A stretch of 64,000 nt of DNA, from assembly GCA_001914405.1 (NCBI GenBank), contig MSDW01000001.1, positions 620,001-684,000 on the forward strand, written 5' to 3'. Both the position numbers and the translations under genes were made by a program. Positions 56,726 through 62,476 of the stretch are shown in pieces (position 1 is the stretch's first letter; every line of letters starts with the position of its first letter). The notes below the pieces were generated by a model. That model had not been told where the DNA came from. It worked only from the letters and a program-made list of their open reading frames with translations, and ran no database searches. This DNA comes from Candidatus Methanohalarchaeum thermophilum. GTDB lineage: Archaea; Halobacteriota; Methanonatronarchaeia; Methanonatronarchaeales; Methanonatronarchaeaceae.

Positions 56726-59185
56726 ATGGAATTCTCTGGCTGGTTACTAGATGCAGATTATATTACAGTAGAAGATAGCCCTGTAATTAGGCTTTGGATT
56801 ACACAAGAAGATAGAACTGTTGTAGGATACTACAAGGGATTTGAACCCTATTTTTATGCTGTTCCAAAATCAGGTGAATTAATTAATGACTTAAGAGCAA
56901 CTCTAACGGATTTAGAGACGGAAAGATATAATAAAACTATTTCATTCAAAGAGGTTAAACAGACCAAGAAATTCGATTTTGGTAGAGAAATAGATGTCAT
57001 AAAATTAACTGCTTATCATCCTCAGCATGTTCCAAGCTTAAGAAAAGCTGTTTCTGAATTATCTACTATTTCTGAAGTAAGAGAAGCCAAAATTCCTTTT
57101 GCAAACAGATTTTTAATTGATGAGGGACTTGTGCCCTTGGCAGGAATTAATGTACATGGCCAAGAAATTGATTTTAATGAAAATATCCAGAACACGGAAA
57201 TTAAAGTAAATAAATTCGAAAAAGTTGAAAAAAAACAGGAACCTCCACTTTCTAAGCTGGCATTTGACTGTGAGATGTACAATGAAGGCGGTAGGCCTAA
57301 TTCTTCGAACCACCCTATTGTGATAATTGGATATATAACAGATAAGGGAAAAGATGTCGAGTGTTTAGTAAGTGAAGATAAATCTGATAAAGAATTAATC
57401 AAAAAATTTGTTAAAAAATTAAAAAAACTAGATCCAGATGTATTATTGACTTTTAACGGTGATGACTTTGATTGGCCCTATCTTAGGGATAGAGCAGAAC
57501 AACATGGAATAAATTTAAAATTATCTAGAGATGGGAGAACTCCTACTTGGCGAGGAGGATCTAGAAAAAAGGTATCTCTAAATGGAAGATTAAATGTAGA
57601 CCTATACAGGATAGCAGAGAGAGATGTCGGTGATGTTAAGATGATGTCGCTTGAAGAAGTATCAGATCATTTAGGTGTATTAGACAAAGCCGATAGAACC
57701 AATGTACCAGGAACAAAGATTGGGAGATATTGGGAAGACAAAAAGAAAAGAGAGGAGTTACTAGAATACGCTAAAGATGATGTTAGAAGTACATTTGGAG
57801 TAGGAAATGAATTATTACCTACTCAGATAGAGTTATCTAAGATGTCACGCCAGTTTCTAGATGAAGTCTCAAAGATGGGTCGTGGAAGACAAGTTGAATG
57901 GTTTTTGATGTCGGAAGCTTACGATAGAGGTGAATTATTTCCAAATAAAGGAAATTACGGTAAAAGATCGGAGAAAAGCTATCTAGGAGGATTTGTATTA
58001 GAACCTAAAAGAGGTTTACATGAAAATGTGGTATCATTAGATTTTAGTTCAATGTATCCCTCTTTGATGGTGTCTTATAATATTTCGCCTGATACATTAA
58101 TAGAGGATGATGAAGCTTCTGAACTAAAGGAAGAAGATTACTACGAAGCACCTGAGGTAGGTCATAAGTTTAGGAAAAGTCCAGATGGATTTTTTAGAGA
58201 AATATTACAAGATCTCATAAAAAGGAGAAATCAAATAAAACAAAAGATCGATGAGAGAGAACTAGAAAAGGATAAGAGGCTTTTAAATATAAGACAAAAA
58301 GCAATTAAGACATTAACTAATAGCTTCTATGGCTACACTGGATGGAATGCAGCTAGATGGTACAAAAAAGAGTGTGCTGAAGCAACAACAGCATGGGGCC
58401 GGAAAATGATCAAAGAAGCAATAAAAAAAGCAGAAAACCAAGGATTCAAAGTTATATACGGTGATACAGATTCTATATTCATTAAAAAAGACGGTATAGG
58501 AGAGAACAAAATCGAAAAACAATCCAAAGACCTTGCTCAATCCCTAAATGATGAATTACCTCTTAATATTGAAATAGAAGATGTCTACAAAACAATTTTT
58601 TTCACAGAAAAGAAGAAACGGTACGCAGGCCTAAACTTGGATAACGAAATCTATATCCGTGGCCTAGAAGTAAGAAGAGGTGATTGGTGTAAATTAGCTA
58701 AGAAAATACAGAAAAAAGTTATCGAGATCATATTAAAAGATAAAAACCCAGATAAAGCAGTAAACGTGATTAAAGATACTATAAACGACTTAAGAAATGG
58801 AGAAATCCCTCTAGAGGATCTAGTTATTAGAAAAACTTTAAAGAAGAAGATATCCAATTATAAATCAAAGCAAGCACATGTTAGAGCAGCAGAAAAAGCA
58901 AAAGAAAAAGGATATAAAATTGATCCAGGAGGAATGGTTAGTTTTATAGTAATTAAAAGAGGCGGAGAAAATGTTGGGGACAGATCCTATCCAATTGAGA
59001 TGATAAAGGATTTTTCAAATAATATAATTGAATTTAAAGATAAAACCGGAAAATATAAAATAGATCAAAAATACTACATAGATAAACAGGTTATACCAGC
59101 AGTTAATCGGATATTAAATTACTTTGGCTATACAGAAAATCAATTGAAGGGCAAACCCGAGCAAAAGACTTTTGAAGACTTTTAA
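56726..59185 (+). CDS. polB: Family B DNA polymerase
   Basis: An 819-residue replicative polymerase. The 3'-5' exonuclease is intact: Exo I FDCEMYNEG (about 179), Exo II LTFNGDDFDWPYL and Exo III YAKDDVRST. Polymerase motif A is LDFSSMYPS (about 436), motif B KALTNSFYG-like (IKTLTNSFYGYTG) and motif C YGDTDSIF (about 577). The N-terminal uracil-sensing type domain is present. No intein interrupts it. It is immediately followed by an IS element. Confidence 0.95.
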   Translation: MEFSGWLLDADYITVEDSPVIRLWITQEDRTVVGYYKGFEPYFYAVPKSGELINDLRATLTDLETERYNKTISFKEVKQTKKFDFGREIDVIKLTAYHPQHVPSLRKAVSELSTISEVREAKIPFANRFLIDEGLVPLAGINVHGQEIDFNENIQNTEIKVNKFEKVEKKQEPPLSKLAFDCEMYNEGGRPNSSNHPIVIIGYITDKGKDVECLVSEDKSDKELIKKFVKKLKKLDPDVLLTFNGDDFDWPYLRDRAEQHGINLKLSRDGRTPTWRGGSRKKVSLNGRLNVDLYRIAERDVGDVKMMSLEEVSDHLGVLDKADRTNVPGTKIGRYWEDKKKREELLEYAKDDVRSTFGVGNELLPTQIELSKMSRQFLDEVSKMGRGRQVEWFLMSEAYDRGELFPNKGNYGKRSEKSYLGGFVLEPKRGLHENVVSLDFSSMYPSLMVSYNISPDTLIEDDEASELKEEDYYEAPEVGHKFRKSPDGFFREILQDLIKRRNQIKQKIDERELEKDKRLLNIRQKAIKTLTNSFYGYTGWNAARWYKKECAEATTAWGRKMIKEAIKKAENQGFKVIYGDTDSIFIKKDGIGENKIEKQSKDLAQSLNDELPLNIEIEDVYKTIFFTEKKKRYAGLNLDNEIYIRGLEVRRGDWCKLAKKIQKKVIEIILKDKNPDKAVNVIKDTINDLRNGEIPLEDLVIRKTLKKKISNYKSKQAHVRAAEKAKEKGYKIDPGGMVSFIVIKRGGENVGDRSYPIEMIKDFSNNIIEFKDKTGKYKIDQKYYIDKQVIPAVNRILNYFGYTENQLKGKPEQKTFEDF

Positions 59186-59290
59186 CTTATTTGGTGAGAA
59201 GTCCCCTTCCTCAATCTTTGATTTAGGTAGGGGATGAATCACCATAACCTTTATATGCTCTGATATGTAATGATTATATAGTGGTTATTT

Positions 59291-59419
59291 ATGGATGGTC
59301 CTACTACTATACAGATCGAAACAGAAACAAGAGAAAAACTAAAAGAACTAAAAATCACAAAACTCGAAACCTATGATGAAATAATAAACCGACTAATAAA
59401 AGAACACGAAAAACAATAA
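59291..59419 (+). CDS. 42-residue ribbon-helix-helix-like protein inside the TnpB element
   Basis: A short frame: MDGPTTIQIETETREKLKEL, then KITKLETYDEIINRLIKEHE. The TTIQI strand, the REKLKEL helix and the TYDEIINRLI helix match small archaeal RHH (VapB/CopG-like) DNA-binding proteins. A TATA-like TTTATATGCTC lies at about 59251-59261, roughly 30 bases upstream. It ends 22 bases before the tnpB ATG, so the two should be one transcript. Control of tnpB is inferred. Confidence 0.75.
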   Translation: MDGPTTIQIETETREKLKELKITKLETYDEIINRLIKEHEKQ

Positions 59420-59441
59420 TTAGTAATTAGGTAGTGGTTGT

Positions 59442-60644
59442 ATGATTACATACAAGTTCAGACTGTATCCATCCAATGAGCAAAAAGAAAAACTTGAAGA
59501 AACACTTGACTTGTGCAGATGGACATACAACCACTTCTTAGAGAAGTTGAATGAGTGTGAAGAAGTACCAAGCCGATACGAACTACAAAAAGAACTACCA
59601 AAACTAAAAGAAGAGAAACCAGGACTCAAACAAGTACACTCAAAAGTCTTACAAATGACTCTAAAAAAACTATACAATAACCTAAAAGCATTGTCAGAGA
59701 GTAAAAAGAATGGATACAAAGTAGGGAAACTAAGATACAAGGGCAAAGGTTGGTACAAAACCTTCACCTACAACCAATCAGGCTACAAAATCAAAGAAAC
59801 AAACACAAGAAAGAACCTACTAAAACTATCCAAAATCGGGGAAATACCGATCAGAATGCATAGAAAAGTAAAAGGTGAAATTAAGAACATTGTTGTAAAA
59901 AGAGAGCAAACAGGTAAATGGTTCGCAAGCATAGTAACGGATTTTCAAAAGGATTTAAGTAGTGGTGAAGGAGTAGTAGCAATAGACCTAAACACTACTA
60001 ATTATCTAACTGATAGCAACGGATTAGTAATAGAGAATCCTAAGTACTTAGAGGAGAAAGAAGAAAGACTTAGAAAAGAAAAACAAAAACTTGACAGAAA
60101 ACAAAAAGGAAGCAATAATTACGAAAAACAGAGAAGAAGAGTTGCTAAGAAGTACGAAGAACTAAGAAATGCAAGAAAAGACTTCCTACACAAGTTATCA
60201 CGAGCATATGTAGAAAATTATGACACTATTATTTTAGAAGATCTAAGTATTAGTGATATGTGTGAGGATAGTTTTTTTGCTAAAAGTAATTTGGATACCT
60301 CTTGGGGTAAATTCAAGGATTATTTGAAGTACAAGGCTGAGAGTGCTGGTACCGAAATAATCCTTGTAAACCCAGAAAACACAACCCAGATCTGTAGTAA
60401 TTGTGGGGAGAAAGTTAGTAAGAATATTTGGGATCGGGAGCATAAATGCCCTAACTGTGGTTTCTCCACAACAAGAGACCATAACTCCTCACTGAACATT
60501 CTTAAGAAGGGTTTAGATAGTTTAGGCATGGGACAGGCCGAAGTCACGCCTGTGGACACTGGAACCTCTACAGACACTAATTTTGTGTCTGCAAGTTCTG
60601 TGGTTGAATCAGGAAGCCCTCTCCACACCGAAGCGGAAGCGTAG
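59442..60644 (+). CDS. tnpB: TnpB RNA-guided nuclease (IS1341 type), intact
   Basis: A 400-residue TnpB with N-terminal ITYKFRLYPSNEQKEKLEE. The RuvC acidic residues are D in VAIDLNTTN (about 180; the usual Gly after DL is Asn), E in IILEDLS (about 266) and D in TRDHNSSLNIL (about 345). The zinc finger is CSNCG...CPNCG (about 317-338). The reading frame is clean. Family members cut DNA guided by an RNA derived from the element's right end. The substitution DLG to DLN is unusual and could lower activity. Confidence 0.93.
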   Translation: MITYKFRLYPSNEQKEKLEETLDLCRWTYNHFLEKLNECEEVPSRYELQKELPKLKEEKPGLKQVHSKVLQMTLKKLYNNLKALSESKKNGYKVGKLRYKGKGWYKTFTYNQSGYKIKETNTRKNLLKLSKIGEIPIRMHRKVKGEIKNIVVKREQTGKWFASIVTDFQKDLSSGEGVVAIDLNTTNYLTDSNGLVIENPKYLEEKEERLRKEKQKLDRKQKGSNNYEKQRRRVAKKYEELRNARKDFLHKLSRAYVENYDTIILEDLSISDMCEDSFFAKSNLDTSWGKFKDYLKYKAESAGTEIILVNPENTTQICSNCGEKVSKNIWDREHKCPNCGFSTTRDHNSSLNILKKGLDSLGMGQAEVTPVDTGTSTDTNFVSASSVVESGSPLHTEAEA

Positions 60645-60754
60645 GTATGGTAGGGGTAGTTCACTAGCACATAACAGTGAAGACATGGGTAAATATTTAA
60701 GATAAATGTAGCAAAATATTTTAGATTAAATAAACGAAATAAGGAAATAAAAAT

Positions 60755-60994: not shown

Positions 60995-62476
60995 ATCTAT
61001 TTGACTGAGAAGGCACCTTCCTAAATCTTTTGATTTGGGTGGTGTGGTGGTTCAGTCTTCTGGAAAAACTTTTAAATATACTAGTAAGCATTAGGTATAA
61101 TAGGATATAGTAGGATGAAGAAGTCGGTGAGACAGAATCTACGTGGACTAACCAAACAAGAATACGAGATATTGAAGAAGATGAGTCATAAGTCCAAGGA
61201 TCTCTACAACGAAACACTCTACGAAAAGAGACAATACTTCTTCAACAATGGGGAATACTTAAACTATTACAAAACTTACAAACGCCTAAAAGATGAAAGC
61301 GAGAACTACGAAGTCCTGATCTCACAGGCCGCTCAGCAAACGATGAAGCACGTGGACAAAGCTTTTAAATCTTTCTTTAAATTAATAGAGAAGAATAAAG
61401 AAGGTAAGTACGATGCTGAAGCTAGTCCACCCCGTTACTTAGAAAAGGATGGATACTTTTCATTGATATTTCCTAAGTCAAAGCTTCCAGGTTAAAGAAG
61501 ACCACATAAGAATCGGTGTCCCAAGAAGTTTCAGAGAAAAATATGGGTACACCAAAAGAGAAATCCAAATTGATTTCACTTATGAGAAACTAAAACAAAG
61601 CCATATAGACATCAAACAACTACACATAATTCCAAGAGCAAAAGCACAATACTTCGAATATAGAATAGTTTATGAAGAAGAAAAAAAACCAGTTGAGACA
61701 AAGGGAGGGTGCTTGGTTAGGTATTGATTTGGGGTTAGATAATTTAGCTACTTGTGTTGACCACTTTGGACGCTCATTTATTTTAGATGGGCGATTACTT
61801 ATAATCGTACAACAGGTGGTGGAACAAAGAAGTAGCTAAATTAAGTTACAATCCATAAAGGATAAACAAGGGTTTGATGGGAACACGAAGAGAATAAACA
61901 AATTATTTCAGGACCGAAACAATTACATCCACGATTACCTAAATAAGGCGGCTAAGGCAATTGTTGACTACTGCAAAGAAAATAAAATCGAGAAGGTGTA
62001 TTGTGGTGATGGAAAGGGATGGAAACAAGAAATAAGCTTAGGTGACAGCAACAACGAAAAATTTGTTGAGATACCTTTTGATTGGTTTAAGCAAAAACTC
62101 AAACACAAACTAGAATATTATGGCATTGATTTCATGTTAGTGGATGAATTTTACACAAGCAAATGCAATGCATTAGCTAATACTGAGGTAAGGAAGAAAC
62201 CAAGTTATAGAGGAAAAAGAACAGAAAGAGGCTTATACAAAACAAGTGATGGCACACTAATTAATGCAGATGTGAATGGTGCTTTGAACATAGCTAAAAA
62301 GGGTATGTCCGAAACCAATTTAGAGTTGGGAGTAGGAAGTAGTGGTGGTGTGGACACGCCAAGGAGAATAAGGAAACCCTTCGGGTTAGGATACGGCTCA
62401 AACATAAGTGAGAGCCTAATTCAAACTTCTCCTGAAACCCCTACCTAATCTTCGACCAGGTAGGGGTAGTTCACAA
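60995..62476 (+). mobile_element. IS605-type element with dead tnpB, copy 2
   Basis: Left end TTGACTGAGAAGGCACC with CCTAAATCTTTTGATTTGGG (61001-61045). Right end CCCCTACCTAATCTTCGACC with AGGTAGGGGTAGTTCAC (62437-62475). The sequence tracks copy 1 (42815-44313) over the full length. No tnpA is present. The tnpB frame has fewer stops than copy 1 but the same frameshifts. Confidence 0.87.
61115..62448 (+). pseudogene. tnpB: tnpB (IS1341 type, SYTSKC subgroup), disrupted
   Basis: The N-terminal part (61115-61495; [40 protein letters not shown]) ends at a frameshift where PKSKLPG-stop should read on as [14 protein letters not shown]. The RuvC start [20 protein letters not shown] is broken again after LDGRLL and after WWNKEVAKL. 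The C-terminal frame (to 62448) holds [32 protein letters not shown] and [15 protein letters not shown]. All three breaks occur at the same places in copy 1. Confidence 0.85.

What the first reader, a model, noticed from the sequence alone, without database searches (positions are those of the whole stretch)
59188..60667. TnpB element carrying its own small RHH gene
A 42-residue RHH-like protein sits between a clear TATA element and tnpB. It could repress tnpB and the guide RNA, giving the element copy-number or toxicity control. TnpB with a dedicated small repressor is not a standard arrangement that I know.
Basis: partly seen in the sequence, partly recalled or inferred. Interest (0 to 1): 0.62.

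Follow-up and report, generated by a model that had tools for sequence, protein, structure and literature searches.

The report
TnpB transposon with autoregulating RHH repressor
This archaeal jumping element carries, in front of its RNA-guided DNA-cutting enzyme TnpB, a conserved 42-residue DNA-binding protein that very probably shuts off its own promoter, and so the cutter and its guide RNA; the same small switch is found in several other archaeal groups and in front of two other types of DNA-cutting enzyme.

Summary
ORF 59291-59419 encodes a 42-aa ribbon-helix-helix (RHH) protein (Pfam DUF7557) between the promoter of an IS1341-type element and an intact tnpB (59442-60644). It is not a one-off: the same genome holds eight more copies directly upstream of a second TnpB subfamily, and close relatives precede tnpB in Aenigmatarchaeota, Nanoarchaeota, Micrarchaeota and a Thermoplasmata bin. 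The RHH is under strong purifying selection. Between TATA box and start codon lie tandem hexamers exactly 11 bp apart (three here, 59263-59290); 11 bp is the only enriched period across 20 loci (z 8.3). The hexamer changes with RHH residues 4 and 6, which align with CopG's base-reading residues. Best reading: an autorepressor controlling one transcript holding RHH, tnpB and the presumed guide RNA. RHHs are 68-92% identical where linked TnpBs are 30-55% identical, and the same cassette also precedes an HNH and a DUF559/NUMOD3 nuclease (one case each), so it looks like a portable control module. Nearest precedents: CopG, and the RHH/MerR repressors of type V-K CRISPR transposons. No binding or repression has been measured; copy-number or toxicity control is inferred. 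No report of RHH-controlled TnpB was found in the open-access papers searched.

The parts
59186..59244 (+). Left end of the IS200/IS605-type element: GGTGA...TCACC hairpin, directly after the target TTTTAA (59180-59185)
   Evidence: DNA fold z -3.55; same left end at 40 or more places in the genome, two of them next to tnpA genes
59249..59256 (+). TATA-like box CTTTATAT
   Evidence: Read from sequence; a TATA-like box lies at a comparable place in the related loci
59263..59290 (+). Proposed operator: three hexamers at 11-bp steps, ATATGT (59263), TTATAT (59274), TTATTT (59285), ending at the ATG
   Evidence: Only six such pairs in 64 kb on both strands, two of them here; period 11 the only enriched one over 20 loci, z 8.3; covariation with RHH residues 4 and 6
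59291..59419 (+). 42-aa RHH protein, DUF7557, proposed autorepressor
   Evidence: Pfam E 4e-10; conserved before tnpB; purifying selection
59442..60644 (+). tnpB, 400 aa, intact
   Evidence: NCBIfam guided_TnpB E 5e-85; presumed catalytic motifs and zinc finger present
60500..60664 (+). Presumed guide (omega) RNA region at the tnpB 3' end and right end, TTCAC at 60660-60664
   Evidence: By position and by analogy with known TnpB elements; the 3' part is kept in two internally deleted derivatives; fold alone not significant, z -0.70; no Rfam match

Best explanation
The element is an IS200/IS605-derived, tnpA-less (IS1341-type) transposon whose first gene is a CopG-like autorepressor. The 42-aa RHH protein would dimerise and bind tandem hexamers one helical turn apart between TATA box and start codon, blocking transcription initiation of the single transcript that holds RHH, tnpB and the 3' guide RNA. 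When the element enters a naive cell, repressor is absent and TnpB and guide are made; as repressor builds up, nuclease expression falls. The same protein could act in trans on other copies and on internally deleted derivatives that keep the operator. Shown: the gene, its conservation and selection, its pairing with tnpB, the 11-bp tandem sites and their covariation with RHH residues 4 and 6. Inferred: binding, repression, co-transcription, and control of toxicity or copy number.
For: Pairing: 16 of 24 distinct close RHHs are directly followed by tnpB, against 2 of 84 more distant DUF7557. Operator: period 11, z 8.3 over 20 loci; three sites in the window. Covariation: hexamer position 3 is G in 6 of 6 sites with Asn6 and 0 of 28 others; position 5 is G in 25 of 26 sites with Arg4 against 2 of 8 with Pro4 or Leu4. 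These positions align with CopG Arg4 and Thr6, its base contacts (PMC8251345). Five-base linkers between RHH half-sites are known for Arc and CopG (PMC3325190). Purifying selection. Tight spacing or overlap of RHH and tnpB.
Against: No binding, footprint or expression data. The Asn6 loci may be one clade, so the covariation has few independent events. AlphaFold of the monomer gave low confidence and no strand, which is uninformative for an obligate dimer. L014 keeps tnpB with a broken RHH, so the RHH is not strictly required. A separate internal promoter for the guide RNA cannot be excluded.
Confidence: 0.8

Rival explanations
1. The RHH is an antitoxin-type protein that neutralises TnpB or another toxin by protein contact, as in VapB-like systems.
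For: DUF7557 and VAPB_antitox similarity; another DUF7557 gene in this genome (L010) is followed by an ORF that looks like a RelE-type toxin by eye.
Against: The tnpB-linked proteins (37-49 aa) lack the C-terminal extension of most relatives not linked to tnpB (59-98 aa); partners vary between divergent TnpBs, HNH and DUF559 nucleases, which makes one shared protein contact unlikely.
Confidence: 0.07
2. The RHH is a transposition accessory factor that binds the element end and helps the HUH transposase TnpA, as RHH proteins help conjugative relaxases (own knowledge).
For: RHH sits next to the left end; the element needs TnpA in trans.
Against: The repeated sites are in the promoter, not in the hairpin; the same left end occurs in elements without RHH; the cassette also occurs before HNH and DUF559 nucleases with no recognisable IS605 left end just upstream.
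Confidence: 0.05
3. The RHH mainly activates, or regulates host genes, and its place in the element is incidental or a domestication.
For: Some loci keep an RHH without an evident nuclease (L047, L143); a few RHH proteins activate as well as repress (AmrZ, NikR; PMC3325190).
Against: The sites lie downstream of TATA up to the start codon, a repressing position; pairing with nucleases is the rule; only four comparable site pairs occur elsewhere in the 64-kb window.
Confidence: 0.06

Closest known systems
CopG, plasmid copy-number repressor (PDB 1b01, 1ea4, 2cpg)
   Same: 45-aa RHH autorepressor without extra domain; base-reading residues 4 and 6 at the same positions (PMC8251345); RHH operator with 5-bp linker (PMC3325190)
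   Different: Only 17% identity to the window protein; operator sequence differs; controls a nuclease gene, not plasmid replication
CvkR and RHH Arc_1/Arc_2 regulators of type V-K CRISPR-associated transposons (PMC9938897)
   Same: Small RHH or MerR regulators carried by a transposon next to an RNA-guided, TnpB-derived effector (Cas12k); CvkR is a shown repressor; leaderless transcripts
   Different: 53-72 aa Arc genes, divergent from cas12k rather than in one operon; cyanobacterial; Cas12k does not cut DNA (own knowledge)
IS200/IS605 TnpB elements (IS1341 group) and PATEs of haloarchaea (PMC3119063)
   Same: tnpB without tnpA, near-terminal palindromes, many deleted derivatives
   Different: Carries an RHH gene and operator; no such gene is mentioned in the passages read
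Controller (C) proteins of restriction-modification systems (own knowledge)
   Same: Small autoregulator ahead of a dangerous nuclease gene
   Different: C proteins are helix-turn-helix and activate as well as repress; no methylase here

Membership tests
RHH (MetJ/Arc/CopG) repressors | Sequence similarity to an RHH family | tested here: met
   DUF7557 above cut-off; ungapped MAFFT alignment to CopG with Arg4 and Thr6 in register in the Arg4 members, but 17% identity
RHH (MetJ/Arc/CopG) repressors | Beta-strand dimer fold | tested here: inconclusive
   Monomer AlphaFold pLDDT 72, two helices, no strand; a dimer could not be run
RHH (MetJ/Arc/CopG) repressors | Repeated operator sites read by the strand residues | tested here: met
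   11-bp tandem sites and covariation with residues 4 and 6; binding itself not tested
IS200/IS605 (IS1341-type) TnpB element | TnpB with RuvC residues and zinc finger | tested here: met
IS200/IS605 (IS1341-type) TnpB element | Subterminal hairpins, fixed target motif, no tnpA inside | tested here: met
   left-end hairpin, TTTAA(C) before most copies of this left-end group, no tnpA in the element
IS200/IS605 (IS1341-type) TnpB element | Omega RNA at the 3' end | tested here: inconclusive
   fold not significant; no Rfam match
Nuclease-dead TnpB repressors (TldR) | Loss of RuvC catalytic residues | tested here: not met
   presumed catalytic motifs present
Type II toxin-antitoxin (VapB-like antitoxin) | C-terminal toxin-binding extension and adjacent toxin gene | tested here: not met
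   37-49 aa against 59-98 aa for most relatives not linked to tnpB; the next gene is a nuclease in most loci; VAPB_antitox score below cut-off

The most novel reading that the evidence does not exclude
A portable promoter-operator-RHH cassette is used in archaea and their viruses as a common safety switch by unrelated selfish nucleases (several TnpB subfamilies, HNH, DUF559/NUMOD3), and in trans it represses all copies and guide-RNA-only derivatives in a cell, giving copy-number feedback on RNA-guided cutting.
Probability: 0.4. Interest if true: 0.75.

Novelty: new variant of a known kind. Interest (0 to 1): 0.62.

Why it matters
TnpB is the ancestor of Cas12, and how elements limit TnpB cutting is largely open. 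A dedicated repressor with readable operator sites makes that question directly testable, offers a possible natural off-switch for archaeal TnpB, and suggests parallel recruitment of small RHH repressors by TnpB elements and by the TnpB-derived Cas12k transposons. The matched operator and recognition-residue variants are also a small natural data set for RHH specificity.

Tried and rejected
Operator pattern alone in viral contigs (TTATGTn5TTATGTATGRAA): six hits, none before a relative of this RHH, so the pattern alone is not diagnostic. RHH in the phage and plasmid collections: no match. TnpB P0002 in viral contigs: none. PDB sequence search with the RHH profile: no relative. AlphaFold monomer: not informative. 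Rfam: only a chance-level 23S-methyl hit over the left-end hairpin. RNA fold of the 3' end: not significant. Haloarchaeal-type DUF7557 loci of the same phylum: none of 30 directly upstream of tnpB. Relatives of the L141 and L054 nucleases in IMG/VR do not carry the RHH, so the nuclease swaps rest on one case each. Papers: none found on RHH with TnpB; most subscription journals are not held.

Full report
What is there. The window lies in a 2.14-Mb archaeal genome whose DNA polymerase B is 61% identical over nearly its whole length to that of archaeon SCG-AAA382B04. I think this is an MSBL1-like archaeon, from memory; NCBI lists SCG-AAA382B04 only as unclassified Archaea. Directly after TTTTAA, which contains the polB stop codon (59183-59185), an IS200/IS605-type left end begins (hairpin z -3.55). 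It is followed by a TATA-like box (about 59249-59256), the 42-aa ORF (59291-59419), an intact tnpB (59442-60644) and the right end TTCAC (60660-60664).

The RHH gene is real. It matches Pfam DUF7557 above cut-off. In the same genome eight more copies lie directly upstream of, and overlapping, a second TnpB subfamily about 35% identical to this TnpB; several of those tnpBs are broken by stop codons while all eight RHH frames are open. The TnpB most similar to this one (L014, 80%) has what looks like a frameshifted RHH remnant upstream (read by eye). In genome contigs the closest relatives, 37-49 aa, come from Aenigmatarchaeota, Pacearchaeota/Nanoarchaeota, Woesearchaeota, Micrarchaeota and a Thermoplasmata bin; most are followed at once by tnpB. 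Over all loci, 16 of 24 distinct RHHs scoring at least 66 bits have tnpB directly behind them (nine of the 16 are from the own genome). L046 (truncated tnpB N-terminus) and L051 (assembly gap) add two more. Among 84 lower-scoring DUF7557 proteins only two do, L080 and L119. Synonymous differences are near saturation between diverged pairs while pN is 0.03-0.15.

The operator. Upstream of the start codon in 20 loci the only enriched direct-repeat period between 6 and 21 is 11 bp (best six-base match 5.3 of 6, shuffled 3.55, z 8.3). Typical is TTATGT-n5-TTATGT-ATG. The window has three such sites, ATATGT-n5-TTATAT-n5-TTATTT, ending at the ATG; only six comparable pairs exist in the 64 kb on both strands and two of them are these. 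The TATA-to-ATG distance in the other phyla suggests leaderless transcripts with the sites over the initiation region; this is inference. DUF7557 genes without tnpB also show tandem (C/T)TATA-like sites, with a period nearer 10 (z 4.7), so self-control may be general in the family.

Covariation. All three loci with Asn6 have G at hexamer position 3 in both sites; none of the 14 others does. With Arg4, position 5 is G in both sites in 12 of 13 loci; with Pro4 or Leu4 in none of four. The RHH aligns without gaps to CopG over the strand, Arg4 on position 4 and Thr6 on position 6; these are CopG's base-contacting residues (PMC8251345). The Asn6 proteins are very similar to each other and may be one clade, so the p-values (0.0015 and 0.002) are optimistic. 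L050, L080 and L077 have other site sequences and were left out of this count; L080 and L077 look closer to a period of 9.

A portable cassette. RHH identity is 68-92% between loci (leaving out the distant L119 and the 61% pair window-L055) whose TnpBs are mostly 30-55% identical; for example L045 and L052 share 89% RHH and 36% TnpB identity. In the viral contig L141 the same promoter and RHH precede a 248-aa DUF559/NUMOD3 nuclease, and in L054 an HNH nuclease (L054 promoter), with no recognisable IS605 left end just upstream. Each nuclease swap is a single case. High RHH identity could also reflect stronger constraint rather than exchange.

Mobilisation and derivatives. At least 40 similar left ends occur in the genome, two of them next to tnpA genes, so mobilisation in trans by IS200-type TnpA is likely. 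Two derivatives (C2:207967, C1:914847) keep left end, TATA and operator joined to the 3' end of tnpB and the right end. If transcribed, they would be guide-RNA units under the same operator; this is inference. A neighbouring broken tnpB element at 61008-62448 in the window has no RHH gene.

Mechanism and novelty. I favour negative autoregulation of a single RHH-tnpB-guide transcript. The nearest precedents are CopG and, for RNA-guided elements, CvkR and the RHH-type Arc_1/Arc_2 of type V-K CRISPR transposons, which are divergent to cas12k (PMC9938897). Nothing on RHH with TnpB was found in the open-access papers searched. I therefore rate it a new variant of a known kind.

Noticed in passing
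window 61008-62448: A second IS1341-type element with a tnpB broken into several frames, a different left-end hairpin and no RHH gene.
   Followed up: partly
L021/L156 (C2:207734-208085) and L026/L157 (C1:914847-915100): Internally deleted derivatives that keep left end, TATA, operator, the tnpB 3' end and right end, but lose the RHH and most of tnpB; possible guide-RNA-only units.
   Followed up: partly
own genome, 40 or more places: PATE-like repeats with the same left-end hairpin, including very short ones such as L169 with fused ends.
   Followed up: partly
L141:2501-3378 and L054:3001-3833: Same promoter-RHH cassette before a DUF559/NUMOD3 nuclease in a viral contig and before an HNH nuclease.
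   Followed up: partly
L080 and L119: Two more distant DUF7557 RHH genes also directly precede tnpB, suggesting separate recruitments; L080 has repeats with a period near 9.
   Followed up: no
L057-L131, DUF7557 genes without tnpB: Their promoters also hold tandem (C/T)TATA-like sites about 10 bp apart, which suggests self-control across the DUF7557 family.
   Followed up: partly
L010 (C2:76) and L107: A longer DUF7557 gene followed by an ORF that looks like a RelE-type toxin by eye.
   Followed up: no
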